A stretch of 64,000 nt of DNA, taken from assembly GCF_022539665.2 (NCBI RefSeq), contig NC_081334.1, forward strand, positions 9,332,424-9,396,423, given 5' to 3'. The position numbers and the translations under genes are program-made. Each line of letters starts with the position of its first letter. Positions within the stretch are counted from its first letter, which is position 1. This stretch comes from Daphnia carinata. Taxonomy: Eukaryota > Arthropoda > Branchiopoda > Diplostraca > Daphniidae. Shown here piece after piece: positions 2,961 to 45,440 of this stretch. The notes beneath the pieces are model-generated. The model had not been told where the DNA came from. It did no database searches and worked only from the letters and a program-made list of their open reading frames with translations.

Positions 2961-3000
2961 ACAGATAGGCAAGGATAATTAGTAGTCCCTATACTGTTAA

Positions 3001-4300: not shown

Positions 4301-7300
4301 ATGGAACAGATGCTATTATTCATCTACTTACTCACCATCATTCCATCCGCGTATCCCATTTATTCAACCGTATGCGACTGTTACAACGTAAAGACCAGAG
4401 GAATTTTAGATATAGAAGCACCATATTACTGCAACAACAAGGAAACAGTTACAGCACACTTATCCAGAATACCCACTTTGTACACTTTAAAAACAACGCA
4501 GAAACCAGCAGCTTCTTGGAAAGGCTTGTCATGCAAACAATGGATAAAAACGAAGAAAATAACAGGATCATTTTGGATGGGATCCTTCGACACAATATAT
4601 TCACAAGAAACTAAACTAATAACTCCACTGGAATGCTGGAAAATGGTGAACGACAATAAGTGTGGCGATAACAACATGCAGACAGGACCATTGGGCCTGA
4701 GTTTCACAGCCACACCGACGGGCGAAGGGAAATGGTATGCCATAAAAGAATACCATACCCTCAACTGTATAGCGGAACAAATCACGCTACGACAGGAAAA
4801 ACCGAATTGAAAGACCTTTTGGATCGTTGAATACCACCCAACAGGAAGGACACGGAAACTACAAGGAAACTGTACGAAATGTTCAAAACAACTATACATA
4901 CATACCTACGGAATACTCACCTGGATACATCAGTGTGCAAGGATTATAGAGAACTCTAATTATCCAAGCGAAAACGATCCGTTCAGTAAGAAGTTAATTC
5001 TTGCTAAACACTCCTCTCGAAGATTCTGACAATGGTAAACGTCTATACAGCCTTTCGTATGCCTGGGGATCAATAAGAATGGGATATCAACAAGCAGTCA
5101 GAATCGAGGAGAAAGAACGGTTCATGATATACAACGCCACGATATACGTAACCGAAAAACCTGGAGAAAGTAATCCGATAATGGCCCTCTATCGTCTAAG
5201 CGACAGTGACCCACTGACTTCAGGATCAGAATTTGAATACATCGTCGATCAAACAATTCGACTTCAGAAAACTAATATTTGCATTACCGAAACAGAACCA
5301 GACGTCTAGTTGCAGCTACCTGTTCAGACTTTTCAACACGTTGGATCTTCGATCAGCAAAATTATCAATTAATTTCACAAGAATCGTACCTATGCATCAC
5401 CTTAGGCACAGGCCAAATAATCAAACTGGCGGAATGTAGCGAAGAAGGAAGTGAATACGCCAAACAATAATGGATCTTCGAAACTGTAAACACCAATCCT
5501 GATATCCTAGAAAATTTTCCGAATACAGCATTAGCGGAAATGAAGGAAATTGAACAAGAACAACGAAGGGCAATCACAACCACAATTAATTCACCACTAT
5601 TCGGAGGAATATTAAAAATTAATCACGGTAGTGGAAATATTATCTGGGACATGATTGCCTGGGGATTATGGAAAAACTGGAAAGCACCGAATGAAAAATG
5701 TCTAACACACCACGGAGTAAACAAACAAATGACATTGGAAGAATGTGACAATGAGTGACCGAGATGTCAAGAAGAACTGCGAAAACTAGTAAGCAGCAAC
5801 GATCCATTAGTGCAATCACAAACTACGGTGGCCAACTGTAGCAAAGCAACGGAGGACAGCTTTTGAATATACATCTGACTTCATACAAATGGATCATTCA
5901 TCAAATTCCATCAGACCGTTCAATACAAGCACCTGTATCAAAGCCAACAAAACAATGCTAGTCCTTCAAGAATGCGCTAACACTAGCTCAATCTGGGGCA
6001 CCTTAAAGCACACAGAACAGCTCATGGTAACAGATAGAACTGGGTTACATTCACCTTCATCAGACAGAAAGTGTCTAACACAGAAAGTAGGTAGAGTGAG
6101 CCTGGGGCATTGTCACGGCTCCAGCTAGAAACAACATTTTAGCTTCGAGTGTCGGAATCTACACCAGCCAAAAACGCTTTCAGCGGCAGCCATCATAGCA
6201 CTACACACTAAACATTCATTGGACGGGAAAACACCCCCACCTTTTCCGCCACTAATGAAAAAAGAAATCAAGAACCAATCAGAAAGGAATGAAACACTGA
6301 CTCCGCCCCCTGCCACGACCACAACGGAAAAAGCCACAACATCAACAAGCACTACAACAACTACAAAGCCCACAATAAAAACAACATTGGGAACAACGAC
6401 AAAAACAACGGTAAAAGCTACGACTACAAATAGGCCAGTTACAAACACAGCAGCCAACAAGCCCACGACAACGCATAAAACTACAACTAAACCAGTATGA
6501 CATCAACTTCAACAAAGCCCCCTTCAATTACAAAGCCAATAATCACGTCAACAAGCACTAAACAAACCACCACTACTAGAACTACGACAACTGCTAAAGT
6601 AATTTCAACTTTAACAACCACTACAACTACTAAACCTACATCAACAACAACAACGCCCACTACGACAAGATCCACAACAACGACGACAACGACGACGCGC
6701 CAACCAATCTCAACTACGTAAATTACGACGACAGTGAAAGAAAGTCCGAGGACCCCACAATCATCAACACAGACCGTCACAATAACCCTATTAGCTACAA
6801 CAGAAACAACATCTACAACAGAAGAAAATCAAATTCAGGCCATAGAGGAAAATAATATTCAAAGTTTACCACCAGCAGAGTCCCTGTTAATGGATTAGAA
6901 AACTTAAGATTCATTAATTGGTATATAAATGTGGAATTCAACCGTTTTTTACTTACGAAGGAAAGAACTGTACGATCGGAACAGATGGATGGTCAATTCA
7001 TCCGTACTCCGGATACGGCAGAAACCTAGCATTTGAATGGAATTTGGAATTTGAAGAACTTCATATTGATGATTTCGACTTCTCACTGAAAAGCCATCCA
7101 GCACACGAAATAATGGAGATGGAACTATTGAATATCCTGAATGACCTAGTAGGCAGAATGCAAGAAAGAAATTCGAATTCTGTTGGAGATATAGTGATGT
7201 CAGAACAATAAGAAAATCAAATGGGTCATATGTTCTCATGGTTCGACAAATTGAAAATAATCAGCCTATCAGTGATTGGATTCGTACTCTTCCTAGTATG

Positions 7301-7564
7301 CCTACGAATCTTCATTGTGTACAATCCTTTTCCGAAGATCAAAGAACGCATTCGCAGAAGCCGAAAAACGAAAAGATACAACGACAGCAAAGAAGAGGAA
7401 GAACATAAACTGACCTCGATGATACCGGCACAAGAACCAACTTATCATCCAGACATGGTTATCGAACAACCATTCATAAGAACGTCCGCTCCTGCACCGC
7501 TGACAGAAGAAAGACATGGTCAAATACGCCCCCAACGACCAAGCGCACCAATTAGCCTACAGTA
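4301..7564 (+). pseudogene. Envelope-like glycoprotein gene (copy A), broken
   Basis: Starts 26 bp after the integrase stop. In order: a hydrophobic signal peptide (first ~19 residues), a Cys-rich ectodomain (C/W/G-rich, with GEGKWYAIKEYHTLNC), further ectodomain to about 6130, a Thr-rich mucin-like stalk (about 6300-6830), a membrane-proximal part with SFWMGSF-type aromatic motifs earlier and HMFSWFDKLK near 7220, a transmembrane helix (GFVLFLVCLRIFIV, about 7275-7320) and a basic cytoplasmic tail. At least six frameshifts or stops. I cannot assign the ectodomain to a known viral glycoprotein family by eye. Copies B and C carry the same gene. Confidence 0.8.
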
Positions 7565-8216
7565 ATCTACCCAACTATCGACGAAACTGAACCACCCAAA
7601 CGATTTACAGGAAAAACACTACACGCACTTACGTCGTCGGGTATGGCATGGTTTGGGAAGATCTATGCCGTTGCATACCAGAAACAGACAATACTAAATC
7701 CACCAAGAAATAAAGCCTTAAGATCACACTAACGAAAAAAAATATATATATAAAAAGAAATAAAATTTTTTACTCACCCCAACTTCAAGCTAAGCAAACA
7801 ATTGATAAATACTACCTATTAACCATAACCATTATAGTAACCATTAACCAATTAATTAGTACCCCTCCAGTAACTAACGCACTTACCATTACCCATCAAT
7901 TTGAAACTTCATCAATTACTTTGATTATTCATCAATTCCATCAATTTGAAAAAAAAACAGCTAACAAATAAATTCAGATAAAAAATTTGCATTCAAGACT
8001 AACACAACTAACCACAAAGAAAAACAAAAAAAAACAAAAAAGAACGACACAAAATCAAAAACAGAAACAAAAACAAAAATACAAGGAAAAACAAAGAAAA
8101 GAAAAGTTAGCCGTCCGAAGAATCGCGCTCAGGAAGAGGGTCACCATAAAGAAGAGAATTGCAGATCTGAGCTACGTGTGTTATGGCCAGGCGATCATCA
8201 TGCTCTTCTTGGAGAT
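7565..8216 (+). other. Post-env region and truncated start of the accessory ORF (copy A)
   Basis: After the env tail comes an AT-rich noncoding stretch, then a Lys/Gln-rich open frame (7987 onward) leading into KLAVRRIALRKRV at about 8105 and DLSYVCYGQAIIMLFLE near 8200. The same sequence, similarly placed after env, is seen in copy C at about 32,950-33,090 (minus), where it leads towards the ankyrin-repeat ORF. In copy A it is cut at 8216 by the LTR of copy E. Confidence 0.6.
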
Positions 8217-8419
8217 TGTAAAGTTTCGTAACCTCGTGTATTTGCAGTAAGTTACCGAAACAACTCTGAATTACAAGTTACAAATATGCAGTATTTATAC
8301 TACTACAGAACACAAATTATCAAGGTAAAGTAGGAGGTGATGCGTTCACTTTCACTTGTGAAACGCTTGAGGGATGTAAGAGGTGTGGCTTCCTTTGGTT
8401 AGCCTTTGGGATCGTTACA
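8217..8419 (-). repeat. 3' LTR of type-1 copy E
   Basis: A 203 bp LTR on the minus strand, from TGTAACGATCCC (8419) to GAAACTTTACA (8217), i.e. TG...CA ends. A TATA box (TATAAATA) lies at 8292-8299 on the minus strand. Its relatives are at 22,824-23,024 (copy B, 5' LTR) and 30,482-30,677 (copy C, 3' LTR). Confidence 0.85.
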
Positions 8420-8729: not shown

Positions 8730-10205
8730 CTACCTTGTGTTTTTGTTCCCATTCTTGGAATATGGCTTGCACACCTTTACTGCATGCGTCCATTCATGGA
8801 AGTCTCTTATTCTTGTGTCTGCTCCGTGTAGAAGTAATACCTCAATCATATCAAGTAGGTTAAATCCGACTGCAATGTGTAGGGCGGTTGTGCCTGGTTC
8901 ATCTTGTTGGTTGATGTTGATGATTGTTTTTGCACAAATTTGGACGGCAAGATCCTCCAGGCCATACATGGCTAGATAGTGCAAAACGGTTCTGCCATCT
9001 GGTCTTGCAATATTGATATTTGTTTATGTCCATATCAACTTCACACATTTTTCGTTTTCGTGTGAAATCGCCAACATTAAAGAAGTTTCTCCACTTGCGT
9101 TGCGAGCTGTAACTTCGCATTTGTTATGCTTCAGGATCCGTAGTAATAGTAAATCATTTTCGGCTGCTGCGGTATGACCAATTGTCTTTCCGTGATATAG
9201 TAATTCTGGGTTCGCTACGAAGGATAGTAGGAGTTCTGTAATGTCGTACCTACTTCTACGTACGCTTGTGTGGAGTAGCGTATGTTCTTCCTCGTATCTT
9301 TCATTGAGGAATGTGGCCATCTTCTGTCTTGGCCAACCCTATTGCGTTTTTAATTTATTTTGGATGCACCTTCTTATTGCCTGTATTGGAACTCCCATCA
9401 TCGTTAAGGAAAGTTTACCCTCTTCTAAATCTATCATGGCTTGTCTTCGCAGTTAGATTTTTTCTGCTCGGGCTGCTGATACGGATGCTATCGTTTTCAT
9501 CCGACAGTTTTTACATTTTTCTGTTCCCCTCTGTTGGTTGTCCGGCTTGTTGCGTTTTTTGGGGGGTTCACACTGAAGACAGTCGTCGCTGTCATATCCT
9601 ATTGCAGTTACATGTTTTCTGCTCGGGCTGCTGATACGGATGCTATCGTTTTCATCCGACAGTTTTTACATTTTTCTGTTCCCCTCTGTTGGTTGTCCGG
9701 CTTGTTGCGTTTTTTGGGGAGTTCACACTGAAGACAGTCGTCGCTGTCATATCCTATTGTAAACTCGACACTGTAATCACTTTCCACATCGGGTGCTATT
9801 CCACTATACGCCATTGGTGATTTCTCGTTTTCGTCTTCACTTGACTCACTCCGTTCATCCAGTTTTTCTCCATTTCCGAAAACGTCGTGCATTTCTGTTT
9901 CTATTCCGTTGAATCCCATTTACCTTCTTAATTGCAGGTTTTCACTCGCACTCTTCACACTCTGTTTTGCTTTGCAGTCCCACTGACTATCTTCACTTTC
10001 GGTATCACTAATAGTGATTAGCTCGTATACTCTCTTCGTCTTTAGGGAGATAATGGTTACTTCGTTTTTTGTAAACTTGGGCAGTGAAGTTATTGGCCAT
10101 TTTGAGATGAGTTGTTGGTTTGTGATGCACACTTTGTTTTTGCGAAACTTTGCAGGAGTTATGCCGTTGAGACACTGGGTAGAATTTAGTTTTTGCATTT
10201 TGCAA
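8730..10205 (-). pseudogene. Ankyrin-repeat accessory ORF of type-1 element (copy E)
   Basis: Read from 10,205 down: a basic N-terminal part; an acidic, Ser-rich region (SDTESEDSQWD, SESSEDENEK); a Cys-pair region (CLQCELP...KCKNCRMKT); then from about 9320 several ankyrin repeats ending near 8740, with typical repeat cores HTLLHTSV, LMLAISHENEKCVKLIW, TALHIAVGFNLLDMIEVLL and HGADTRIRD. A nonsense codon at 9920-9922, a 155 bp tandem duplication and later frameshifts break it. It ends about 300 bp before the polypurine tract and LTR, so it lies inside the element. Ankyrin repeats are protein-binding modules; the partner is unknown. The 8435-8729 stretch is 3' untranslated sequence with nothing else evident. 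Confidence 0.75.
9449..9758. repeat. 155 bp tandem duplication
   Basis: Two nearly identical 155 bp units (about 9449-9603 and 9604-9758), recognised by GCTCGGGCTGCTGATACGG at each start region and the shared stretch ending GCTGTCATATCCTATTG. The unit spans the KCKNC and acidic region of the ankyrin ORF; 155 is not a multiple of three, so the duplication shifts the frame. Copy C has a single unit. Confidence 0.85.
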
Positions 10206-30481: not shown

Positions 30482-30677
30482 TACAAGCTTCAAATCCCTG
30501 CATTTATGGAGTTGCAGACAACCTGAATTCTGCAATGTACAAACATGCGGTATTTATACTAAGACAAGACACAAATATCAAGGTAAAATGGGAGGGATTA
30601 CATTCACCTTTACTTGTTAAATGCTTGAGGGGTGTAAGAGGCGGGGCTTCCTTTGGTTAGCCTTTGGGCTCGTTACA
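30482..30677 (-). repeat. 3' LTR of type-1 copy C
   Basis: About 196 bp from TGTAACGAGCCC (30,677) to ...GAAGCTTGTAT (30,481/2). TATA box TATAAATA at 30,551-30,558 (minus). It abuts type-2 gag sequence at 30,481. Confidence 0.85.
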
Positions 30678-30693
30678 CTCCTTCCCCTCTTCG
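30678..30693 (-). promoter_or_regulatory. Polypurine tract of copy C
   Basis: CGAAGAGGGGAAGGAG directly upstream (minus strand) of the LTR start, as in copy E. Confidence 0.85.
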
Positions 30694-30779
30694 ACAGTAA
30701 AGAATTGGTCCACCAATTTGTGTTTGGTTTCTCCATCACCGGTTACAGTTGCTGCTACGAATGAATAATATAAATTGCT

Positions 30780-33093
30780 CCTCCACCGAAAAGAATTGGT
30801 CCGTATTTTTCTTCACTACTAAAAGTATTACTACATATAAAATTAAAAAGAGTTGCTGGTGATTTTGTTTTCGTTCTTCTCGTTTTTATTCTTGCTCTTT
30901 CTCCGTTACGGTATTTCCCTTGCGGTGATATTCTAGTTGTGCCTTCTTTTCTTCTAGTCTTGGTTAGGAAATTACCTTTATTACTTTAGTTATTAGAGTG
31001 TTTCGTTCTTTTTTACTTTTTATTTAGTGTACCTGATTTAGGCGTGCCTCATAGGGAATCTTTAATTCTTAAATCTGCTCCATGTCGAAGAAGTAGTGAC
31101 ATCAGATCAATGCGGTTGTATGCGACTGCACAGTGTAGGCGGTGCGGCCTGATTCTTCTTGTTTGTTTATGTTGATTGTTCTTTGTGCACAGATTTGTAT
31201 GGCAAGATCTTCTGAGCCATACTGGGCTAGGTAATGTAAGACGGTATCGCCACCCACTGTCGCAATGTTGATATTGGTTGATGTCCATATCATCCTCGCA
31301 CATTACTCATATTCATACGCAATCGCCACCATTAACGGGGTTTCATCTTTTGTGTTGCGGGCTGTAAATTCGCAGTTGTTGTGTTTGAGTATCCGTATTA
31401 ATAGCAAATCGTTATCAGTATCCGTATTAAAAGCAAAGCGTTACTGGCTGCTGCGATGTGGCCAATTGTTTTTCCTTTCTGCATCTTTTCCGGATTTGCC
31501 CCGAAGGACAATATGAGATCAGTTACATCAGTCATCACACCTACTTCTTTGTTCACTTGTGTGGAGGGGTGTAAATCTGTCTTCGGTGGCCATTCGTTGT
31601 CTTGGCCATCCCCGGTGAGTTTTTAATTTGTTGAGGATGCGCTCCCTCACTCTATGTAACACTCTGGCTACTGATACAGACGCTACTGTCTTCATTCGGC
31701 AATTTTTGCATTTATCCGTTTCACGATTGGCTGTAGGATTTTTTACGTTTTTGAGGTGCTGTACATTTCAGATTGTCATCACTGTCGTATCCTATTGTAA
31801 AGTCGACACTGTATTCACTTTCTTATCGGGTGCTATTCCACTAAACGGTACCATTATTTTAGCGTCATCGTCCTCATTTCGCCCACTACGCGTCTAGCTT
31901 TTTGTGAATCTTTTCGGAACTGACACTTTCATATCTGGTTCCACTTCACTGTACGCCGTGTATCGCACTATTTTGTTGTTTTCCTTTGCACTTGGTTCAC
32001 TATTCGCATCCGGTTTTGCTTCGCATTTCTGATGGTTATCTTCACTTTGGTATCGCTAATAGTGATCAGCTCGTACACCTTCTATAGCTTTCGTGGTAGG
32101 ATGGCCACTTTCTCTTTAAAACTTAGGCATTGAAGTTATTTGCCATTGTTGAGATGAATTGTTTGAGTTTTGGAGCGCCTTTTTAGCGAGACTTTGCGGA
32201 GGTTATGCCATTGAAGCACTGAGAAGAGTCGTGGTTTTGCAACTTGCAAAAACTTGCATGTTTAAAGCTCTCCATTTTTGTTCATCCTTTGGTATCAATT
32301 TGTTCTCTCTTTGTCCTTACATTGTTCTCTCTTTGTTCTATAGTTTCTTCAGGTGTTTAACCTGACCCCTTTTTCATTCTTGCTTCTTTTTTTTATTCTC
32401 CTTGATTAGAGTCTTTTTTGTTTCCTTTATTTTTCATGTTGAGATTACATATGAGTTAGCCTAGGGCTATTAGTGTAATTGTCTGTTCGATTCGTTTTTG
32501 TATTTTCTTCTTTATCCCATGCTTTGAATTAGTCTTTGTCGTTTTCAGAGGTCACACCACTCCGGGTTTGCTGTTTTGCTTGTCGTGTTTTCTATGGAGT
32601 TGTTTGAATATGTGTGTTTTGCGGTATCGATCTCAAGCTGATACTGCATTGTAGGCTTCTGATGCCGCGATCTATCACTCTCCTGAAAGTCTTTCTGTAG
32701 ATCCCGGTCCGAAGATCGAAGCCTATTCCTCAGGCTTATTTCAACTTGCCTTCGAACGTCCAGATTCACCGCCACGGGACTTGTTTTACTTTCTCTTTTT
32801 TTCCGGTTTGTTGTAACAATAATCCATTTTTCTCAGGAATCATCTTGGGTATGCGCGCCATCGCAACATCTACCTAATCAGGTTCGCCCGATTCCTTTGG
32901 TGGCTGGAGTCGGGTGAGTATATTTATCACCCCACTCCGACTTCTTCTCGGTTGATGAGTGAGCTTCTCCAGGAAGACCATGATGATCGTCTAGCCATCC
33001 GGCATGTAGCCCAGATCTACAACTATCTGCTCCATGGTGAACCTCTTCCTGAGCGTGATTCTTCGGGCGGCTAATTTTCTTTTTTTTTTGCAT
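30780..33093 (-). pseudogene. Accessory ankyrin-repeat ORF of copy C
   Basis: Begins after env with KLAARRITLRKRFTMEQIVV at about 33,080, continues through a basic, Ser/Arg-rich region (32,545-32,775), and an acidic and Cys-pair region (KCKNCRMKT at about 31,690; a single unit, not duplicated as in copy E). Ankyrin repeats follow at about 31,560-31,050 (DTVLHYLAQYGSEDLAIQIC, LLLRHGADLRIKD). It ends shortly before the polypurine tract. Numerous stops and frameshifts, including a small internal repeat near 31,390-31,435. The full ORF would have been around 650-700 codons. Ankyrin repeats mediate protein binding; no partner can be inferred from sequence alone. Confidence 0.7.
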
Positions 33094-33440
33094 TTTCTTG
33101 TGCTTTTATTTTTATTTTTGGTTTTGTTGGTTAGCTTAGTCAGGAATACAATTTTCTTATCTGAATTTTATTTGGTGGTTATTTTTTATTTATTTATTTT
33201 TTCAAACTGATGGATAATGGTAACCTTACTGGAGTTTTGCATCTACTTAATGGGTAGTATTTGTTCATTGTTTGTTTAGTTTTAGGTTATGGGTGAGTAA
33301 AAATATTTTTTTTTCTTTAGGATCTTGGGGCCTTATTTTTTGGTTGGTGTAGTGTTGCCCGTTTCTGGCATGCAACGGCATAGATCTTCCTAGACCATGC
33401 CATATCCCACGAGGTAAGTGCATGTAGTGTGTTTTCCCGT

Positions 33441-33737
33441 TCATCCTTTTGATGATTCTGTTTCTTCAATAGGTGGATAAATTCCTTGATCCGGTGCGCT
33501 TGGTCGTGGTGGGCGTACTTGACCGTGCCTTTCTGTTGTCAGCGGCGCAGGAGCGGACGTTCTTATGAACGGTTGTTCGATAACCATGTCTGGATGATAG
33601 GTTGGTTCTCGTACTGGTATCACCGAGGTGAGTTCATGTTCTTCCTCTACGCTATCATCGAATTTTCTCGACCTTCGGCTTCTGGGGATACGCTCTTTAA
33701 TTTTCGGAAAAGGGTTGCTCACAACGAAGATCCGTAA
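33441..33737 (-). pseudogene. Env cytoplasmic tail of copy C, separated by the MULE
   Basis: NPFPKIKERIPRSRRSRKF and the Pro-rich end equal the env tail of copy A (7320-7564). The MULE sits in the codons for the transmembrane segment (FLVC), so the rest of env continues at 39,533. Confidence 0.85.
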
Positions 33738-33747
33738 ACATACTAGG
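33738..33747. repeat. Target site duplication, left
   Basis: ACATACTAGG, identical to 39,523-39,532. The same ten bases occur once, with one substitution, in the uninterrupted env of copy A. Confidence 0.95.
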
Positions 33748-34374
33748 GTAGCCGGTGAAATAGACTGAAACGAAATAGACTGAGAAATAGGACTGAAAAT
33801 TTCCAGTCCTATTTCTACCGGAGGAATAGGACTGGGAGAAATAAGACTGACTTTTAAAATTTTTAGACAGTCCTATTTCTCCATGGCATCAGTCCTATTT
33901 CTCCTCGGCATCAATCCTATTTCTCCTTAGAAATAGTCCTATTTATTTTATTTTGTTCCAATAGGAACGATATGCCTCCAATTCGGTATGCAACTTATTG
34001 CGTAAGAGCGTCGGCTTATATCCATTTCCCTTTGTAAAAAGCCGATGGTGTTAACTCATAACTTAAATGGTTCACCAAACATTTATCTTTTATCCTATTT
34101 TAATTTAAATTGCAGGGGACCATTAAATATGTTATATCTAATATAGTTCATTTAATAAAATACTACAACGGCCACACCAGAAATATTTATTAAATTTATT
34201 TTAATATTTAGTGCACAAATAACTTTTCCAGTTGCACTCATGTTGTACTTGCTCATACAACTGTCAGCAACGAATAACAAGCAAGTCTTACCATATCGGT
34301 AGCGCTCTAACCTGTGACAATTGTAGTCCTATGTTCGATTCTCCGTGGTTACATTTCTTCTGAGGTTTTTAATA
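33748..34374 (+). repeat. MULE left terminal inverted repeat
   Basis: About 627 bp. It includes the GAAATAGGACTG array (33,757-33,950) and a tRNA-like A-box/B-box pair (about 34,290-34,345; GTTCGATTC). It ends where TCTGAGGTTTTTAATAA matches the inner edge of the right repeat. Confidence 0.9.
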
Positions 34375-35130
34375 ACATTTGAGGTTAAGTTAACTATGAA
34401 TAGCAGAAGAATGTTAATGAATCTTCGCCTGTATGAAAGTTAGTTCCTCACCACGAGGAAGAAGAACTGTTGAGATACAAGAGAGTGGATGAGAGAGGAG
34501 ATGAAGATAACGGTAGATGGGCGAAAATAAATTATTTGTAATTTAACATTTTAACACCTCAACTTCTTTACCAAGAAGAGGATTCCACCACCGAAGTGGA
34601 TAGCCGAGCATGACATAGCATTACTCATCAAGTGACGTATGCCAAAGGATTAAGTTAATATTTATATTGACTTTGAAATAAAATTGATGAAGAAGATTTA
34701 TGGGTGCTAAAGCCGAGGAAGTTGAAGATGGTTGCCGGCGGCGAAGAAAGAAGAGATTTGCAGAAGTAAAAGATCACCGGCTTTAGCAGATTAAAACTTA
34801 TGGGTGCTTAAGACGAAGATGTCGAAGATTTTTGCCGGCGGCGAATCGAAAGCAAAGATTTAGAAGGCTGAGAGCTTTCCGGACTACAGTTTAAGACTTA
34901 TGGTTGCACCACATTTAATGACTACTCCATACGACCTTGTATCCCGGAAGCTGATGACGCTTGCCTGCGGCGAATTGAAAGAAAAGGTTTACGTAAATCC
35001 AGGTAATCTTCACTCACCGCAACAGCAAGAAGTGCTTCCTTCCTATTTCCCGAGAGGTGTAATGGCGTTTGGCTCCTCCTTTTTGGCCGACTATATATAT
35101 GGATACAATAATACCATACAACTTTAATAG

Positions 35131-37749
35131 TTCGTCTTAGACTTAAGACTCGAAGATGTAGCGGATGTTAATGGTGCAGTAGCCGGGGGATCAAAAGGCG
35201 ATGTAGCTGTTGTTGCTGTTGCTGGTGCTGAAGGTGGTCGTCCTAAGAGATTGCTGAAGCCAAGGAGCATTTTCGACCCTTCCGACGTAGGCAAGAAAAA
35301 GCCTCTAGTTCCAGCTTATCCACGTCGTCCCTCATCACCACGACAGCGATCAACTCCTCGCACATCTCCTCAGACTAATTCTCCGCATCGTCCAGCAACT
35401 CCGTCTTCTCCAACCTCCCCACTTTCTCCGTTGACAATGTCACCTTTGGTGAGTCTTGTTGTATCTCCTTTTCTTTTTATGTTGTCTCCTCTTCTTAGGT
35501 CAACTCCTCCAGTTCCACCACCACGACGAAGACGCAGGGCCCATCCTCAGCTACCAGACCTGTCTACAGAAGCTGCAATCCCAAGGAGTTCATATGCAAG
35601 CGATGGAAGAAGAGAATAAACATTTGCCGAACCCAGCGAATCGACAATGGAGGTATATATTTCGTCTTTATCGCAACATGTCTGAGTATTTTATTAACTA
35701 AACGTTTTTGTTAGCAATCATCGTATGAGGAACCGACGGAGCCATCCTACAAGATTCATGACGAGGGAACGAACAAGGGACTCCATAAGCTTACTGATGG
35801 ATTAGGTAATAATTCGAATATAATTGCTAATTGAATAAGACTAAAAGAGGAATTCCTTTCTTACTATAGGATTTTGCTTCAGCAAAAAAGCCATCAGTAA
35901 GAGCACATATACATGGCGCTGTACCTCCCGACCTTCTGGAAACTCATGTAAAGCGATCATGAAACAAAAGAAAACCCCCCTTTTGGATTGTTTGCTTAAT
36001 TACAGTAATGCTGACTTCACTCTTGTTCCCCACGATCAAGAGAACACCCACAATCACCCACCAGACATTGGAAACCAGAAAAGGGTAAGTGTTTTTAGAT
36101 AAAAGTAATTTGAGTTTCTAAATGTGTAACTTGCAATATTTATACATAGGTTGACATCTTTAGAGAATCAAAGGAAGCCTGCGTCGATCAACAGTTTACG
36201 GACCCCAGGGAGATCTTATTTGCCGAACTGAAGAAAAGCAAGTCCATAGAGGGAAGACACATGCCGGATGTTGATTTGGCCACTCGTCGTTTACGGTACA
36301 TTAAATAAATAAATTATATCATGATTATGGTTAACGATTAAACTTTATATTCCAGTTACAAGAGAGCGAAAGGTTATGCCCGCCAATCCCGAAGATGACC
36401 CTTTCTTTCCTGTAGTGGGAGAAATTTCTTCCCACCAGCTGGTATCAGGGCGCCATCTTTGCTGGAACGGCCCAAGACCGTGCCCGGCACCTTCTGTTCT
36501 TTACCCCTACCATGAGCGCCAGCTAGAAGACTGCAAGACATGGTTTATGGACGCAACATTCTATTTTGTTGATGAACCCATCAAACAGGTGCGTTTAATT
36601 ATCTTGATAATGTAACCAAATTTAATTTTAACCTATTTCTCTCTATATAGTTCTTCACGATCAATGGGTTCATCAAAAACGACAAGAATGAAATAAAGCA
36701 AGTACCCTTATTGTTTTTGCGCGATGACCAGGAGAAGAGCAGCCGACTATAGCCCCGCTGTCTTCGAGAAGATAAAGGTATAGATACTATCTCATTTACA
36801 AATAGTTTGTTATGTAAAAATAATAAATTTTATATTGTTATAGGATATAATCCCCCTTCCTAGAGTCCAGCGGATCGTGACCGATTTCGAACGTGCTATA
36901 TTTACGGCTGTCCGCAGGCACTTTGTGGATTGCCAGCACTTTGGCTGCAATTTCCACTGGTGCCAAGCCGTTCTGAAAAAGGTCCGGGATCTTCACCTTG
37001 TCACCCTCTACAACAACAAGGGACCGAATCCAGTGCGAGACTTTGTGTTTCGCCTGCTATGCCTTGCATATCTTCCAGGTAAATAGCACATAAATGTTAT
37101 ATTTAATTGTCATGAATAACATTTGTGAACTTTTTGTAGCTGGTAAAATTCCTGGTGTGTGTGACGCGTTGAAGAGCTCAGCACCTAGCGAACTTCCAGC
37201 ACTCATGGATTATATGGAGCGGAATTGGATTCGGGGCAAGTTGTGGACTCCTGAGAACTGGTCATGCTTCAACATCTTAACGCGTACCAATAAGGACTGT
37301 GAAGGAATGCACCACCAATGGAACAAGGTAATTTAAATTTGAACAATAATATGTAATGAATAATTAATAACAAAAATGTTTGTAGTTGGCAGGCGGATCT
37401 AATTTAAAATTCTACAAGATTACAATGGTATTGCGGAAACTGGCCGAAGAAGTTTCCCTTACTAGCACGCTACTCTGCCATGACAAAATAAGGGCTCACC
37501 GGAAGAAAGAGACCCGTACTGTTCCAGCTTTGGGCGCGCTATCAAAATAATGAGCTATGTTTTCTAAATTTACAAGAAAAAAAATTTCCCTATAACTAAT
37601 CATTGTTTTTGCAGCTATCTACAATGGATCTACTAGAAGAAATAGTTTTAGAGCTTAGATCATCTTTTCCCGCTATTGTTTCCTCACATGCCCTTAATGT
37701 TGCTATAAATAATATTAATGATGAACTAGATATGTCTATAATTGAATAA
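35131..37749 (+). pseudogene. MULE transposase with FLYWCH finger
   Basis: Exons separated by short GT-AG introns. Pro/Ser/Thr-rich N-terminus (35,131-35,447). FLYWCH zinc finger in 35,716-36,083 (GTNKGLHKLTDG, TYTWRC, HNHPPD). VDIFRESKEACVDQQFTDPR, then RYKRAKG. DDE domain: DATFYFVDEPIKQ (first Asp, about 36,550), DYSPAVFEKIK, TDFERAIFTAVRRHF and CNFHWCQAVLKK (second Asp and CxxxxH, 36,880-36,980), RTNKDCEGMHHQWNK (Glu, about 37,300). The last open segment ends at 37,749, with AATAAA at 37,812-37,817. Apparent one-base frameshifts near 36,375 and 36,720 break it, and the first intron phases are unclear. No in-frame ATG is visible at the 5' end; copy 1 has 213 extra bp there. Confidence 0.85.
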
Positions 37750-38918
37750 CATTTGTTTGTTTGTAACATGTATTTTATTTGACGAATGTTTACCAATTAA
37801 CATACCTTATAAATAAACTTACATAATCTCAATTGACTTTTTATTTTAATGTAATATATAATGTAATACATTATGCTTGAATTATTACGATAATACTTGT
37901 TGTGCAAGCGACGACTAATGTGCCGATTGATGGTTTTGGTTCGTGGCCACAATTCCAGAGAATGATTGTTCTAAAAAAAATAAAATTGCAATAATTATAC
38001 CAGTGTACTCCATGTAACTATAAATGAATTTACCTTGCATGTTTAAATCCTTCCAACCATTTACCAAACGAGTGATATGAGAAAGCAAAAGCTTTCAATT
38101 GTCCGGAAGAACGGTTTAAGAATTCGTTGATCAGAGCTCCCCTGTGAAAAAAGAAAATAAAATTAATGAAAAAGGCAAAAAAAGAACCCAGAACAAAAAA
38201 CGTTAAACCGACCCGAGTAAACTGTAAAAAAATTGCCACGCAAAACCTACAAAGAAGAAAAAGAAGAAAAAAAAAATTAGTAAAACATAAGCAAAGTTCA
38301 GTTGAAACACAATAAAAAAAAGTAAAAGCATTAGGTGACGTCAAGTATAGTTAGGTAGCATACCCATAATTTGCAGATGTAATTAAATAACTATCGTAAA
38401 TATTTCTAATCCTAGTCGGCCTGCGTCCCGACTAAGATATCTATTTAACTGAAGGTCCACCGGACCCGTCAGACAATTGGTTTCACGACGACACTGTGAA
38501 ACCAATCCCGATACCTGTGCCCATTGAGGTGACAAGTCTCAATGCCCTTACACTTAAATTAACAATGCCAGCACTCGAACCGTTGCCTATCCGTTCCGAG
38601 CCCGATACAATGTGTCCGGGTACGGCCCAGCACTAGTGAAATAGAAAATGTACTTACGGTTTGCGACTCCTTAGAAACAATCTGCAGCTGGGCAGGAACT
38701 GGGCAGGCCGCTTGACACGAACAACAGATGATTAGCACATTCACGGCACATTCGAAGCACCGTCGACAACCTACACCATGAAGATCTAAATACTGACTGG
38801 CTGAAATGCTGAAACCGCATGTGAAAATTGGGAAGTCAGAACTACCATTATTGCCATTTCAGGAGTATTACCTAAACGCCAGTAATTGTTTTCTCCCAAA
38901 AATTCTTTCATAGAACAA
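37750..38918 (+). other. MULE 3' noncoding region with hairpin cluster
   Basis: No convincing reading frame. Four successive inverted repeats lie at 38,411-38,544: CCTAGTCGG/CCGACTAAG; GGTCC/GGACC; ATTGGTTTCAC/GTGAAACCAAT (38,476-38,486 and 38,496-38,506); CATTGAG/CTCAATG. A-rich tract at 38,140-38,330. Confidence 0.55.
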
Positions 38919-39522
38919 TTATTAAAAACCTCAGAAGAAATGCAACCACGGAGAATCGAACATAGGACTACACATGTCACAGGTTAGAGCGCTACCGATA
39001 TGGTAAGACTTGCTTGTTATTCGTTGCTGATAATTGTATGAGCAAGTACAACATGAGTGCAACTGGAAAAGTTATTTGTGCACTAAAAAGTAAGAAAAAT
39101 TTAATAAATATTTCTGGTGTGGCCGTTGTAGTATTTTATTAAATGAACTATATTAGATATAACATATTTAATGGTCCCCTGCAATTTAAATTAAAATAGG
39201 ATAAACGATAAATGTTTGGTGAACCATTTAAGTTATGAGTTAACACCATCGGCTTTTTACAAAGGGAAATGGATATAAGCCGACGCTCTTACGCAATATG
39301 TTGCCTACCGAATTGGAGGCATATCGTTCCTATTGGAATAAAATAAAATAAATAGGACTATTTCTAAGGAGAAATAGGATTGATGCCGAGGAGAAATGGG
39401 ACTGATGCCATGGAGAAATAGGACTGTCCTAAAAGTTTTAAAAAGTCAGTCCTATTTCTCCGGTAGAAATAGTACTTGATATTTTCAGTCCTATTTCGTT
39501 TTGTCCTATTTCACCGCCAATC
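38919..39522 (-). repeat. MULE right terminal inverted repeat
   Basis: About 604 bp, the inverse of 33,748-34,374 with scattered differences. Same internal landmarks: tRNA-like segment at about 38,945-39,000 and the GAAATAGGACTG array at about 39,350-39,510. Confidence 0.9.
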
Positions 39523-39532: not shown

Positions 39533-41951
39533 AAGAGTACGAATCCAATCACTGATGGTTATTATTTTCAATTTGTCGAACCATGAGAACATGTGGCTCA
39601 TTTGATTTTCTTGCTGTTCTGACATTACTATATCTCCAACAGAATTGGAGTTTCTTTCATGCATTCTACTTACTAGGTCATTCTGGATATTCAATTGCTC
39701 CATCTCCATTGTTTCGTGTACTGGATGGCTTTTAAGCGAGAAGTCGAAATCATTAAGATAGAGTTCTTCAAATTCCGTAATAAGGTCTAGGTTAGGCATG
39801 TGAATGCTAGGTTTCTGACGTACCCAATCTCCTGCCGTGGAGTTATGTTCCCAGGTGTGTGGATTTCCATTTAAATTTACTAAAGGTGTTTTCCAAACAA
39901 TCGGAGTTAGGATGAATTGACCATCTGTCTGTTCCATGGCACAGTTCTTTTCCTTCGTAAGTAAAGAGTTATTGAAACCACATTTGTTTTCATTTGCCGA
40001 GATAAAATTCTTTTGCTTCGCATTGTGGAAGTGCCATTGATTGATCGAAACCTTGTAGTCTCGTGCAGATCGGTAAACCTTAACGACGCTGCAGCTAACA
40101 TTCCGTTGGTTTGTGCTAAGATAACTGCCTTTGTCAGCTTCAGGCTTAGAAGTTGTAGTGATTGTTGAAGCTGGAAGGCTTTAGGGGTTGTCGTAGATCT
40201 AGTAGTAGTGGTTGGTTTAGTGCTTGTTGACGTGATTATCGGTTTTGGTAGTTGAAGGGGTTTTGTCGAGGAAGATGTCATACTGGGTTTAGTTGTAACG
40301 TTTTGTGTCATTGTTGGTTTGTTGGCTGCTGTGTTTTGTGAACTGACTTAATTGTAGTCCTGCTTCTACTGTTGTTTTTCCCGTTGTTCCCAATGTTGCT
40401 TTATTGTGGGCTTCGTAGTTGTTGTAGCGCTTGTCGTTGTTGTGGATTTTTCCGTTGTGGGCGTGGATTTTTCCGTTGTAGGCGGGGCAGGGGGTGTGGC
40501 TAATGTTTCGTTCTTTTCTGATTGGTTTTTGATTTTTCTTTTCATTAGTGGCGGTTGAGATGGGAGTGTTTTCCCGTCCAATGACTGTTGAGTGTGAAGT
40601 GCTATGATTGCTACCGCCGATAGCGTCCGTATTTGGTGTGGGTTGCGGTATTCGAAGCTAAAGTGTTGTTTTTGACTGGAGCCGTGGCAATGCCCCAGAC
40701 TCACTCGACCTACTCTCTGTGTTAGACACTTTCTATCTGATGCAGGTGAATGTAACCCAGTTCTATCTGTTGCCATGAGCTCGCCTGTGTGCTCGAATGA
40801 TTCCGTGATACACATATCGCTGTTCTGTAATCGTATCGTTTGGTCAACGATGTATTCGAATTCTGATCCTGATGGAAGTGGATCATCGTTGTTGAGACGA
40901 AAGTGAGCAGTTAATGGGTTACTTTCTCCAGGTTTGTAGGTTATGTATATCGTTGCGTTGTATACTATATACCGTTCTTTTTCCTCGATTCCGATTGCTT
41001 GTTCATGTCCCATTCTTATTTATCTCCAGGCGTACGAAATGCTATATAAACGTTTACCAGTGTCTGCGTCTTCGATAGAAGTGTTCAGCAAACATGCAAC
41101 TTCTTGCTGAATTGATCATTTTTGCTTCGATTGTTGGAGTTCTCTATAGTCCTTGCACACTGATGTATCCAGGTTGGTATTTTGTAAGCATGTATTTCTA
41201 GTTGGTTTGAACATCTCGTACACTATCCTTGTAGTTTCCGGAAGAAAAATTAGGTACGTGAGTGTATGCTCCACAACTTTGTAACCTTGTGGTGTGATAT
41301 CTTCATTCGTTTGCTTAGAACGAAATCTCGATCTGTCGATTGGTGTCGTAAAGTCAAGCTGGCATTTTTCGTAAATGGTATTCTTGGGAAATTGAGATAT
41401 CCGTTTCTTTTAATCAACGTTTGCGAGTATGAATTATTGTTGTTCTATCTCCCCACACAATTGTGTTTTGATTCTGAATGAAGTGTCCTTCTTGCTGGGT
41501 GGTGTTCAACGGTCCGAAAGGGCTTTCAATTGGGTCGTCTGGTTTTTCCTGTCGTAGCGTGATTTGATCCGCTACGCTGAGGGTATGGTATTTTTGCGGC
41601 ATACCATTTCTTCGCCTGACGGAGTTGTTGTTCCTTGTTAGATGTCTGGCCTGTATGTTATTATCACCACACTTCTTGTCGTTTACTATTTTCCAGCATT
41701 TTAGAGGGCTTATTAGTTTTAGTTTCTTGGGAATACACTGCGTCGAAGGATCCCATCCAAAATGATCCCGTTATCTTCTTCTTCGTATTGGTCCATTGTC
41801 TACACGTCCAACCTTTCCCAGAATCTGCTGGTTTCTGCTTCGTCGTTAAAGTGTATAAAGTGGATTTCTTGGGTAAGTGTGATGTATCAGTTTTCTTGTT
41901 GTTGCAGTAGTATGGTGCTTTTATATCTAAAATTCCTCGTTCGTTATTCAT
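39533..41951 (-). pseudogene. Env ectodomain and stalk of copy C
   Basis: From 41,951 (RGILDIKAPYYCNN; the signal peptide is deleted) through the Cys-rich ectodomain, the segment 41,013-40,366 (the longest intact env frame in the window, 215 aa: IVDQTIRLQNSDMCITESF, SDRKCLTQRVGRVSLGHCHG), a shortened Thr-rich stalk (about 40,180-40,510) and the membrane-proximal HMFSWFDKLK at about 39,570, reaching the transmembrane start where the MULE is inserted. Several frameshifts. Much of the stalk is shorter than in copy A. Confidence 0.82.
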
Positions 41952-42189
41952 GTATGCAGGTTCATTTGGAATGGGAAAGAAGACTTGTACGACGTGTGTA
42001 TATGCTTCTTCCTGTTTCTTGTTGCTCGATGCTCACACGTTCCAGCGGTAATCTGTCTTTCGTTGGTATTGAAGTGTTTTCTTGGTCTTCCTGGTCCTCG
42101 TCGTATTATTTAATTTTCGGTGTTTTTGCCACATGTGCTGTTCCTTCTGTTTTTAAGTTTCTTGGGTCGTAAAGTTTTAGGCGATTGAT

Positions 42190-43632
42190 GTGTAATACTG
42201 ATTTTAGTTTTTTATTGTTGACGTCTTGGATCTCGTAGATGTGTCTGAGAAACATTTGGTGATTTTGAATGGTCCATTCCACCTGTTGATGAATTTTTCG
42301 GCAGTTAGCGGGGCTTTCAATAGCACAAAGTTACCGATGTTATATTTGATCGCTGTTGTTCCTTCATCATAGTATCGTTTTTGTTTTGTCTGTGCCCGGA
42401 ATAGGTGTTCTTCGCCAATTGCTGGAGCCTTCTTCCATTGACGCGAGTACATTACACTGATGTTTTCGTTTGTTTCGTACCGTCTGTCCATTTTGATGTC
42501 GTTTGTGGGCACAGGTTGTCTCCTGAAGAATAGGAAGAATGGTCATTGCAGCTGATTGCTTTGCTGTGTTATAAGCGAAAGTGACGAATGATGATATTTG
42601 TCCAAATTTTCGGGTTCGTCCGTAACATAACAAGCTAACATGTCGCATAGGGTCCTGTTGAATCGTTCTACTAATCCGTCTATTGGTATGATGATGGGGA
42701 TGGTAAGCAGCGTTCTTAGTTCTTCGATTTTTGAATAATTTGCAAATTTCTGGATTAAGCTCGACAGAAAGTTAGTTCCTTGATCTGTTAGGACGACTTC
42801 AGGGAGCCGCATTTGTCAGTTCTGATTAACCAAGACTTTAGCACTGCTTCTGGGCAATTTGATCTCTCATTGGCACTGTGTAAAAACAAACACCTGGTAT
42901 AATCTGATAGGACTGAAATATACCTGTATCACTTTGCGCTTTCTTGAATTGACGCAATATCCATTGCGTCCCTTCGTTCCTCTCCCCATTTCTACTCGGC
43001 TGATTTTCTCGTGAGCGCCGCCAGTGGGAGGGCTTCATCGGCAAAAGCCCGGATGAATTTCCTGTAATAACTAGTCAAACCTAAAAATGAGCTCAATTCT
43101 TTCACGTTTTTGGGGGCTGGGTATTAATTGATTGCTTCTAGCTTTTTCGTGCTCGGTGTTACTTCTTTTTCCAAACAATGTATCCTATATAATCTAACTC
43201 TTCTTTTGAAAAAATTTTGTTCTTTCTTCTTAGCTTGAGTCCTGCGTCTTTAAACTTAAACATTGTTTCCAGATGCATCACGTGTTCTGTAATGTTATTA
43301 CTGAACACTATGTCATCGAGGTAAACCAATACAGTTATAGAACGATACCGATTGCAAGATGTTATTCATTGCTCGTTGAAAAGTGCTTGGTGCGTTTGTT
43401 GAGCAGAGTGGCATTCGATTAAATTCGTATGGTCCAAATCCACAAATGAAGGCGGTTTTGTGTTTGTCGCAAACACATAAAAAGTAAACGGAAGTAAACT
43501 CATCCGCTCAATGCGTCAATGGTGTCAATTCTTGGTAATGGATATTTATCTCTGACGATTATTTTGTTTAATGCCCTATAATCAATACACAAACACATTT
43601 CCCCATCTTTTCGGGTACCATTACAATCGTGT
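42190..43632 (-). pseudogene. RT fused by deletion to integrase (copy C)
   Basis: RT part 43,000-43,632 includes VYLDDIVFSNN at about 43,310. At about 42,965 the reading jumps from the RT connection (SAEWKWGEE) straight to the integrase core (AMDIASIQESAK...YRY), removing RNase H, the coiled-coil linker and the zinc domain. The core has LPEVVLTDQGTNFLSS (second Asp), DGLVERFNRTLCDML (Glu) and CYVTDEPENLDK. The C-terminal domain at 42,204-42,512 has QTKQKRYYDEGT and NFVLLKAPLTAEK. The RT upstream part is interrupted by copy F. Confidence 0.85.
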
Positions 43633-43771
43633 TGTAAGTTGGGGATTCACGCTCAATAAAAAAAAAAAGACGGTCGAGGGGCGAGTTCGAGTCACAAGGT
43701 GTATATCTCTCGCAATCACGCAGACACAGTTTAACACAGGGGAATAATAGGGTACACACACGATACGCGAG
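43633..43771 (-). repeat. 3' LTR of copy F, truncated
   Basis: Shares with the 5' LTR the segment CACAAGGTGTATAT, CGCAATCACGCAGACACAG and CAGGGGAATAATAGG, and ends TTACA (43,633). Its first ~70 bp is missing; integrase sequence abuts it at about 43,771. Confidence 0.8.
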
Positions 43772-44770
43772 CCCACGCTACAGAAAGAACAAGACATCAC
43801 GAAAATTTTAACACTATTTCCCAGCCGTGGCCACCAAAACCTACTCTTAATTTTTGCTAAAGTTCTTTCAATACCCTGGTGCCCAGATGAGGGAGCTCAT
43901 GGCACGCTTCTAAAACCTTTCTACGGAGGATGGAGGGAACGACAAGGAGGAATTTCTTGCCAGAGCGCCTATTTTTCTTAAATAAAACTATACTGCGAAT
44001 AATGAGCTCTTGGGAAATATTACAGGGAGTAGGAATGTCTAATGCTTCAAAAAAAAAATTTCAGCTGGCCGTCTTTCTGCTGCAAGAGGGCGAGCTCTCG
44101 TGAGGAAAAACCCACTTTGGGCTCTCTTACGGTCGCACAGAGTGTCTCGGAATCAAGGGCTGTTGTCAAGACTTCGACCGGATTCCTAGACAGCGTGTCT
44201 GCGACGATATTGTCGGTCCCATTCAGGTGATAAATCGTAAATTGAACTCCTGTAGTTCGAGAACTCACCTAGCAAACTTCCCTTCAAATCTTTCTTCCCC
44301 ATCATCCACTTGACGGCGGAGCTATCCGGCTTGACAAAAAGTGTCTGCCATAGACATACGTGCGCAACTTTTTCAGCGCCCACCTCACCGCAAAGCACTC
44401 CAACTCACTGGCGTGATAGCGCGTGTCAGTATCCGACAGCCTTCTGCTAATAAAGGTCACAGGTCGGTGTCCTTTACCAGCATCTTGTGTCAATACTGCT
44501 CCAAGTCCAGTCTAACTTGCGTCGGTCTGACTGGTGACTTCCAGAGCATCATCGAAATGAGCCAGAACAGGAGCAGTCGTGAGACGCTCAATGATAATGT
44601 TCTTTGCGCCTTCATGACTCTCCGTCCACCTCCACTCAAAATTCTTTTGGGGAGTACGCAAAGGGTGAGCTAATGCCGCAAAACCTGAGACAAAACGCCA
44701 ATAGTACGACGCGAGTCCCAGAAATCCTCATAACCTGATTCAAATTCGTCACGAGGCATACACGTCAAGG
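43772..44770 (-). pseudogene. RNase H and start of integrase (copy F)
   Basis: RNase H segments: TQDAGKGHRPVTFISRRLSD, YHASELECFAVRWALKKL and the tail HLNGTDNIVADTLSRNP at 44,180-44,230. Then VPSILRRKVLEACHELPHLG, the beginning of the integrase HHCC domain, before the deletion at about 43,771. Frameshift near 44,300 and stops in the first third of RNase H. No DDE core is present. Confidence 0.8.
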
Positions 44771-45440
44771 CGCGCACCTTCTCCTTCCGGGCGGATTCCT
44801 TCCGCATCGATAATGTGTCCTAAATGGGACACCTTGTGGCTCCGAAAACGCATTTTCGATGCTGAGGGTCAAATTTGCTCTCTCTAGGGCGGTTAATACC
44901 AGCTATAGGCGTACCAAGTGCTCCTCAAACGTTCGGCCAAACACCAAGATGTCGTCTAGATAAACTAGACACATGCGTCACTTCAAGCCGGCCAAAACAC
45001 GATCCATCAAGCTTTGGAACGTCGCGGGAGCATTGCTCAACCCAAACGGCAAACACGTAAACTGGTAGTGACCATCGGGAGTGACAAACGTTGTCTTCTC
45101 CCGGTCCTCTAGGGCTACGGGCACCTGCCAATACCCACTGGCTAGGTCCAAACATGAGAAAAATTGAGCGCCGGCGAGTCTGTCCAAGATATCGTCAATC
45201 CGAAGCATCGGATAGACGTCGCGCTTAATTACCGCGTTAAGTCGCCGAAAATCGATACAGAACCGAATATCTCCCGACTTTGCCGCCGGACTAGAACGAC
45301 GGGGGGAAATCCAAGGACGAAACGATCCCTCCACCACACCGTCTTCCAACATTTCTTCCACTTTCGGCAATAACCTGGCGCTCAAAACGCCGACACTCTA
45401 TATGGGGCGGATTTGATGGGACGCTCACCTCCCGTGTCAA
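44771..45440 (-). pseudogene. Reverse transcriptase (copy F)
   Basis: Mostly open 45,385-44,978: DIRFCIDFRRLNAVIKRDVY, FFSCLDLASGYWQVPVALE, CLPFGLSNAPATFQSLMDRV, followed in the same region by VYLDDILVFGRTF (catalytic YLDD, about 44,950-44,970). The RT is clearly different from types 1 and 2. A frameshift near 45,290 separates the thumb-proximal N-terminus. Confidence 0.88.

What the first reader, a model, noticed from the sequence alone, without database searches (positions are those of the whole stretch)
30482..33737. An env-bearing gypsy element with an ankyrin-repeat ORF between env and the 3' LTR
In copy C, on one strand, env is followed by a basic-start ORF that becomes acidic, has paired cysteines (KCKNC), and ends in ankyrin repeats, then polypurine tract, then 3' LTR. 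Copy E (8217-10,205) shows the same ankyrin ORF, the same tract and the same LTR next to different flanking DNA, so the ORF belongs to the element and is not host sequence caught nearby. Copy A has the start of the ORF right after its env. Known errantivirus-like elements carry gag, pol and env only. Ankyrin proteins are used by some DNA viruses to modulate host signalling; a similar role here would be inference.
Basis: partly seen in the sequence, partly recalled or inferred. Interest (0 to 1): 0.92.

Follow-up and report, generated by a model that had tools for sequence, protein, structure and literature searches.

The report
Ankyrin gene in Daphnia retrovirus-like element
Many retrovirus-like mobile elements in the genome of the water flea Daphnia carinata carry, behind their envelope gene, an extra conserved gene for an ankyrin-repeat protein, which suggests that the element makes its own tool for binding proteins of its host or of its own life cycle.

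Summary
A 104-aa ankyrin piece of copy E has 136 matches; 37 lie in open frames of 400 aa or more without a stop in the match. Of 121 env-tail clusters, 93 have the ankyrin ORF within 4 kb downstream on the same strand. Of 10 LTR pairs compared, 6 have 4-bp target duplications; 5 of these hold an ankyrin frame of 443-476 aa, one only 295 aa. The ORF has about 410-510 codons, not 650-700. dN/dS between D. carinata sublineages is about 0.15-0.31 in the ankyrin half. D. magna and D. sinensis have homologues; D. magna gene models fuse env tail and ankyrin ORF. A related env-bearing element ends env 32 nt before its LTR, without the gene. So it is a real fourth gene of one lineage of env-bearing Ty3/gypsy elements. 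What it binds is unknown: a host-protein adaptor, or a nuclear regulator of the element's RNA, are the leading readings. New variant of a known kind.

The parts
33336..33746 (-). copy C: transmembrane end and cytoplasmic tail of env (with PSAP motif)
   Evidence: tblastn of open env tails, 64-65% identity; ORF 33441-33872
31960..33335 (-). copy C: A-rich spacer between env and ankyrin ORF; the 'basic' frames lie here
   Evidence: no env or ankyrin match; spacer seen in open copies
30944..31959 (-). copy C: remains of the ankyrin ORF, frames shifted
   Evidence: tblastn of P0001, two frames
31699..31713 (-). copy C: KCKNC, part of the C-x-N-C-x-x-K-T motif of the ORF
   Evidence: ORF 31528-31767; motif invariant in the alignment of 6
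30678..30692 (-). copy C: polypurine tract before the LTR
   Evidence: read from sequence
30533..30677 (-). copy C: 3' LTR, partial (146 of 201 nt matched)
   Evidence: blastn 86%
39551..41939 (-). copy C: upstream part of env, in several frames
   Evidence: tblastn of three env pieces
42056..45364 (-). matches to pol upstream of copy C env, in pieces and several frames; may hold more than one copy
   Evidence: tblastn of pol pieces
33852..39442 (.). stretch bounded by 524-nt inverted arms (97%) that separates the two env parts of copy C
   Evidence: I1
8769..10198 (-). copy E: ankyrin ORF, two frames, one in-frame stop, 155-bp tandem duplication at 9449-9758 over the CKNC motif
8217..8419 (-). 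copy E: 3' LTR, 203 nt, preceded by polypurine tract
   Evidence: blastn 86%; sequence
4358..7710 (+). copy A: env, several frames, including the ricin-type region and a Thr-rich stretch
   Evidence: tblastn; ORF 6129-6500 Thr-rich
1593..4271 (+). copy A: pol remains
   Evidence: tblastn

Best explanation
SHOWN: the ORF is a further gene of a lineage of env-bearing Ty3/gypsy elements of Daphnia (order LTR, pol, env, ankyrin gene, LTR), present in open form in recently inserted copies and held by purifying selection in D. carinata. INFERRED: it is expressed from a spliced subgenomic mRNA whose acceptor lies near the start of the ORF, and it makes a soluble protein with an acidic unstructured N-terminal half, a conserved C-x-N-C-x-x-K-T motif and a rigid ankyrin solenoid. 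MOST LIKELY WORKING (inference): the solenoid binds a host protein and holds or decoys it, as virus-encoded ankyrin proteins and accessory proteins from the env-to-LTR region of complex retroviruses do (recalled), so that the element is transcribed, spreads or escapes silencing better.
For: 136 genome matches, 37 rows in frames of 400 aa or more without stop in the match (counted by eye); 93 of 121 env clusters followed by the ORF on the same strand; ten LTR pairs compared: 6 with 4-bp target duplications, 4 without any mismatch; 9 of the 10 hold RT, env and ankyrin matches in this order, the tenth env and ankyrin; 476-aa ankyrin frames in C2:7290945-7306217 and C4:8841659-8855047; pol ORF with protease-RT-RNase H-integrase order; dN/dS 0.15-0.31 in the ankyrin half between sublineages with dS 0.5-1.6; homologues in D. 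magna and D. sinensis, fused env-ankyrin models in D. magna; three deep lineages with the motif; model pLDDT mostly 85 or more over about 190-440; an acceptor-like CTAAyCTCTyCCCAG at the corresponding place in sf1 and sf2 copies.
Confidence: 0.45

Rival explanations
1. The protein is a nuclear regulator of the element's own RNA (export or transcription), working like CERV of the C. elegans element Cer1 or Rev/Tas of vertebrate retroviruses; the ankyrin part is an interaction platform for host export or transcription factors.
For: CERV is a 517-aa nuclear protein from a spliced mRNA with a candidate KRKK signal and a cysteine-rich region needed for export of genomic RNA (PMC10309623, passages read). 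The Daphnia protein has a paired-cysteine motif, an acidic N-terminal half and basic clusters (KNKRKKERRR near the end in sf2, CKRRRGAG in sf3, RSRKRKAS in D. magna), and acceptor-like sites.
Against: No sequence or fold similarity to CERV was tested; subfamily 1 lacks the basic tail; no RNA-binding domain among Pfam hits. That basic clusters act as nuclear signals is recalled, not tested.
Confidence: 0.3
2. The protein works in particle assembly or entry together with the unusual Env (lectin-type domain, long tail with PSAP), for example by binding the env tail or Gag.
For: Env tail with PSAP in 4 of 8 D. carinata loci and 6 of 6 D. magna models scanned; the one sister element read without the ankyrin gene also lacks a ricin-type Env hit, so both novelties may go together.
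Against: One sister family only; no test of interaction; no PSAP found in the sf3 tails L042 and L043.
Confidence: 0.15
3. A host ankyrin gene caught near element copies and carried along passively, without function for the element.
For: Databases annotate the ORF as host genes ('ankyrin repeat domain-containing protein 1-like', P0002).
Against: Purifying selection, adjacency in 93 of 121, presence inside LTRs with target duplications, homologues in three Daphnia species.
Confidence: 0.04

Closest known systems
Errantivirus-type env-bearing gypsy elements of insects (gypsy, ZAM, 17.6 and relatives; organisation recalled)
   Same: LTRs, Ty3/gypsy-type pol, separate env behind pol, 4-bp target duplications; env end weakly like baculovirus F protein
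   Different: one more gene between env and 3' LTR; much larger env with ricin-type and Thr-rich regions; about 13 kb
Burro giant gypsy-like elements of planarians (PMC6431247, passages read)
   Same: gypsy-like elements with env homology and ankyrin repeats in one element
   Different: there ankyrin repeats lie in a giant ORF1 polyprotein and env lies between gag and pol; here a separate ORF behind env
Bdelloid rotifer LTR elements with captured ORF3 (PMC5408684, abstract and section 3.3 read)
   Same: family-specific extra ORFs, missing from the earliest branches
   Different: GDSL esterase/lipase, DEDDy exonuclease or env-like ORF3; no ankyrin gene in what I read
Cer1 CERV of C. elegans (PMC10309623, passages read)
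   Same: extra protein of similar size with cysteine motif and basic cluster, from spliced mRNA
   Different: no ankyrin repeats mentioned in the passages read; exons 1-3 share the gag frame
Ankyrin proteins of poxviruses and giant viruses
   Same: virus-encoded ankyrin solenoids
   Different: mostly DNA viruses; TM-scores by query length 0.20-0.41 in the 50 rows shown of 467; no PRANC or F-box family among Pfam hits of the Daphnia ORFs at E 0.01

Membership tests
Ty3/gypsy LTR elements (Metaviridae) | pol order protease, RT, RNase H, integrase | tested here: met
   L090: aspartyl protease, RVT_1 E 6e-42, RT_RNaseH, Integrase_H2C2, rve in this order
Ty3/gypsy LTR elements (Metaviridae) | LTRs TG..CA, polypurine tract, short target duplication | tested here: met
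   6 of 10 LTR pairs with 4-bp duplications, read by eye; polypurine tract
Errantivirus | F-type Env homologous to baculovirus F (PF12259) | tested here: inconclusive
   P0007 E 1.7e-4, 20.8 bits against cut-off 24.1; sf3 env end E 0.038
Errantivirus | RT within the errantivirus clade | not tested
   only a similarity list, no reference tree
Errantivirus | gag, pol and env as the only genes | tested here: not met
   further ORF behind env in open copies; gag itself was not examined
Errantivirus | infectious particles | not testable with these tools
   -
Viral IkappaB-like ankyrin proteins | closest fold IkappaB rather than other ankyrin proteins | tested here: inconclusive
Poxvirus ankyrin/PRANC proteins | C-terminal PRANC or F-box domain | tested here: not met
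   only ankyrin families at E 0.01 or less in four ORFs; what defines the family is recalled
CERV/Rev-like regulators | nuclear protein needed for export of unspliced RNA | not testable with these tools
   -
Burro-type elements | ankyrin repeats inside the gag-pol polyprotein | tested here: not met
   separate ORF behind env, 0.44-0.86 kb from env end to first ATG in L039, L042, L043, L045

The most novel reading that the evidence does not exclude
A complex invertebrate retrovirus lineage specific to a group of Daphnia species, with a lectin- and mucin-like envelope and a dedicated ankyrin protein that disarms or redirects a host pathway: an RNA-templated counterpart of the ankyrin effectors of large DNA viruses and of the 3' accessory genes of lentiviruses and foamy viruses.
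Probability: 0.25. Interest if true: 0.85.

Novelty: new variant of a known kind. Interest (0 to 1): 0.64.

Why it matters
Insect-type env-bearing gypsy elements are usually described as simple retroviruses (recalled). A stable extra gene between env and the 3' LTR, kept in three deep lineages and under purifying selection where tested, suggests that genomes with a 3' accessory gene arose outside vertebrate retroviruses. Daphnia are laboratory animals, so the partner of the protein can be sought directly. It also warns that 'ankyrin repeat' genes in Daphnia annotations can be mobile-element genes.

Tried and rejected
Host gene caught by chance: rejected. ORF of 650-700 codons: rejected; 413 and 499 aa in database models and up to 511 from the first ATG of sf3 frames, stop-to-stop frames 418-525. 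NF-kappaB-like sites in LTRs as a hint of a Bcl-3-like role: none in 10. IkappaB-specific similarity: not shown, ties. Relatives in virus contigs: none confirmed for P0006 and P0001. Papers: no held paper has both 'ankyrin' and 'errantivirus'; in the listings that I saw of broader searches (20 of 51; 15 of 16; 10 of 199) I followed up only the Burro review as a case of ankyrin in gypsy-like elements; the D. pulex LTR paper holds neither 'env' nor 'ankyrin' as a word in its main text (PMC2996953, word search). A search for ricin-type domains with env in LTR elements listed 3 papers, none on the subject by title. Preprint collections and most subscription journals are not held, so absence from print is not shown.

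Dropped or unexamined rows: I entered all 136 rows and all 136, but 39 of the 89 rows (those that I judged by eye to be the third subfamily; the other 50 I judged to lie on loci). Of 28 env clusters without ankyrin match, 21 were fetched (L049-L068; L092); one more is the window's copy A; 6 were not read. Of the 21: 5 have same-strand ankyrin remnants (L052, L053, L062, L063, L067); 1 is the duplicate of window copy A beside copy E (L059); 3 have LTR sequence without ankyrin (L057, L060, L064); 12 show neither. In 10 of these 12 long frames of other transposons lie downstream by eye (only L061 was tested with Pfam); L054 also has 100 N; L092 matches a young env tail at 100% for 307 nt and then breaks off; L049 keeps a trace of the CxxKT segment by eye, L050 nothing. 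13 ORFs passed the script's filter for dN/dS among loci L009-L048 (a simple Nei-Gojobori count of my own); L029 and L030 are identical, and L044 is an env-ankyrin fusion whose N-terminal values are not meaningful. The 36 ankyrin clusters without env were not examined. In one search only 40 of 205 candidates were scored, so LTR counts are lower bounds. Target duplications were read by eye. In one search the spacer lengths printed for L047 and L038 are not valid (env end not set) and are not used. In one search the sf2 env tail and sf2 ankyrin come from different copies.

Full report
WHAT WAS CHECKED. The window (G000:C4:9332424-9396423 of a 108.1-Mb assembly in 106 contigs) comes from Daphnia carinata: database proteins P0001 and P0002, named as D. 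carinata, lie on contigs of 9,910,348 and 13,273,426 bases, the lengths of C9 and C3. In the window the described parts exist but are decayed. Copy C on the minus strand has env tail (33746-33336), ankyrin ORF remains (31959-30944, two frames), polypurine tract and a partial LTR (30677-30533); copy E has the ankyrin ORF (10198-8769, two frames, one in-frame stop), the same kind of tract and LTR (8419-8217). Copy A has pol and env but no ankyrin match.

GENOME-WIDE FAMILY. A 104-aa ankyrin piece from copy E has 136 matches (150 of 153 candidates scored), 37 of them in frames of 400 aa or more without a stop in the match (counted by eye). They fall into three groups: sf1 (frames up to 476 aa, about 66% to the piece), sf2 (the window's, frames up to 509 aa, about 75-87%) and sf3 (frames up to 525 aa, about 43%). 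A 103-aa env-tail piece has 136 matches. After merging, 93 of 121 env clusters have an ankyrin cluster within 4 kb downstream on the same strand; 2 have one on the other strand within 4 kb; 36 of 129 ankyrin clusters have no env match within 4 kb upstream.

ENV WITHOUT ANKYRIN. Of the 28 env clusters without an ankyrin match 21 were fetched. Five keep same-strand remnants of the ORF, one is the duplicate of window copy A, three have LTR sequence without ankyrin (in L057 and L064 directly behind env), and 12 show neither, 10 of them with frames of other transposons downstream by eye. This reads as deletion and nested insertion, not as a separate ankyrin-less branch of the family; 6 loci were not read.

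YOUNG ELEMENTS. The sf1 LTR (200 nt, TGTAAC...TTTACA) gave 41 matches, 40 of 205 candidates scored. Ten same-strand pairs were compared: 4 have no mismatch, 1 has one, 5 have 2-8; 6 show 4-bp direct duplications at the borders, 4 do not. Seven pairs lie 12.7-13.6 kb apart, the others 9.6, 15.3 and 25.1 kb. Nine of the ten hold RT, env-tail and ankyrin matches in the order LTR, RT, env, ankyrin, LTR; the tenth, C4:8928322-8937878, has env and ankyrin but no RT match in the capped list. Ankyrin frames in the six pairs with target duplications: 476 aa (C2, C4:8854049), 443-444 aa (C9, C7, C6), 295 aa (C4:8929201). The pol of one copy is a single open frame with protease, RT, RNase H and integrase. 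Gag was not examined.

SISTER ELEMENT WITHOUT THE GENE. An element at C9:1501664-1513715 has LTRs that match over 694 nt at 100%. Its env frame (589 aa) matches the N- and C-terminal env pieces of sf3 (24-31% identity, E 7e-20 and 2e-39); its stop codon ends 32 nt before the 3' LTR; no ankyrin match, and no ricin-type domain at E 1. My simple pattern found no polypurine tract there. So env followed directly by the LTR exists in a related family; the gene is a gain of one lineage or, less simply, a loss in the sister. One sister family was read.

THE PROTEIN. In database models sf1 has 413 aa (P0002) and an sf2 copy 499 aa (P0001). Features: an acidic, unstructured N-terminal part (pLDDT under 50 for 1-160), the motif C-x-N-C-x-x-K-T that is identical in the 6 aligned sequences (two D. 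magna copies, P0007 and P0098, lack its second C), a helical stretch, ankyrin repeats to about residue 405, and a basic tail in sf2, sf3 and D. magna but not in sf1. Pfam finds ankyrin families only in four ORFs (Ank_2 E 1e-35 to 3e-22). The model aligns over about 207-440 with several natural ankyrin domains; the best rows are tied, so the fold gives no partner. A CTAAyCTCTyCCCAG acceptor-like stretch lies at the corresponding place in sf1-like (L039, L038) and sf2 (L045, L047) copies: 74 nt before the database start of P0002 in L039, but 22 nt behind the first ATG in L045 and L047, so that a later ATG would be used there; sf3 copies have acceptor-like sites 2-8 nt before the first ATG. This is a prediction without a chance control.

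SELECTION AND DISTRIBUTION. Of 13 ORFs compared, pairs between sublineages of sf1/sf2 with dS 0.5-1.6 give dN/dS 0.15-0.31 from the motif to the end and about 0.20-0.42 for the N-terminal part; pairs with sf3 are saturated; within sf3 values of 0.19-0.33 occur at dS near 0.1; some nearly identical pairs give 0.6-1.0, as expected for copies decaying after insertion or from small counts. Homologues outside D. carinata: with a 261-residue region of sf2 as query, 7 D. magna proteins and one unnamed metagenome protein at 39-45% identity, then ankyrin proteins of many organisms at lower similarity; with a 111-residue region of the D. magna-type form, 22 hits: D. magna 18, D. sinensis 2, unnamed metagenome 2. 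No listed hit of either search is named as D. pulex; its genome was not at hand. In D. magna gene models env parts are fused to the ankyrin ORF (P0005, P0007, P0008, P0009, P0010, P0095, P0098), i.e. the same order. sf1/2, sf3 and the D. magna/D. sinensis group are about equally distant (36-46% in the ankyrin part), env tails likewise (41-55%): most simply, the gene was there before these lineages split. That the three species belong to subgenus Ctenodaphnia is recalled.

HOW IT MOST LIKELY WORKS. Shown: a further gene, in young LTR-bounded copies, under purifying selection. Inferred: spliced expression. Proposed: the solenoid binds a host protein on behalf of the element. I hold this at about 0.45 as a whole (the gene itself at about 0.95), because position (between env and 3' LTR, where complex retroviruses keep accessory genes; recalled) and domain type fit, while nothing names the partner. 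The chief rival is a CERV- or Rev-like regulator of the element's RNA (0.3): CERV has similar size, a cysteine-rich region, a candidate KRKK signal and a spliced mRNA (PMC10309623, passages). A role with Env or Gag is third (0.15).

KNOWN OR NEW. Extra ORFs in LTR elements are known, also downstream of env (PMC6431247, passages; PMC5408684, abstract and one section), and ankyrin repeats occur inside the giant ORF1 of planarian Burro elements. I found no account of a separate ankyrin gene behind env in a gypsy-type element in the parts of the listings that I saw, in a library without most subscription journals. Hence: new variant of a known kind.

Noticed in passing
L089:364-4059 (C58) and window 4358-7710, 39551-41939: The Env of these elements is very large (open frames of 1297-1386 aa at several loci) with a ricin-type beta-trefoil region (PF00652, E 5e-19, three stretches), a block about 50% threonine and a tail with PSAP in sf1, sf2 and D. 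magna; the sister element's env frame (589 aa) has no such hit.
   Followed up: partly
C4:104185-176905 and C4:9293684-9366172 (includes part of the window): The same element fragments occur in the same order and orientation near both ends of contig C4, almost identical: a large direct duplication or an assembly overlap.
   Followed up: no
window 33852-39442: 524-nt inverted arms, 97% complementary, 4.5 kb apart, separating two parts of copy C env in the transmembrane region: probably a DNA transposon insertion.
   Followed up: no
L038 (C5:7169178-7172489): The ankyrin ORF is a mosaic: N-terminal part close to sf1 (dS 0.3), ankyrin part far from sf1 (dS about 1.6) and nearer to the sf2 copy L022 (dS 0.5): recombination between subfamilies.
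   Followed up: partly
L039 (C3 start), L040 (C8:74500-78700): Two young copies are followed by arrays of a satellite with a unit of about 70 bp.
   Followed up: no
L044 (C10:367400-371700): Open 525-aa frame that joins the Thr-rich part of env to the ankyrin protein, apparently by an internal deletion.
   Followed up: no
window 12524-12864: 31-bp tandem repeat array next to the truncated env of another copy.
   Followed up: no
P0001-P0005, P0007-P0011, P0013, P0095-P0106, P0108-P0110: Public annotations list these element-type proteins as host genes, for example 'ankyrin repeat domain-containing protein 1-like'.
   Followed up: partly
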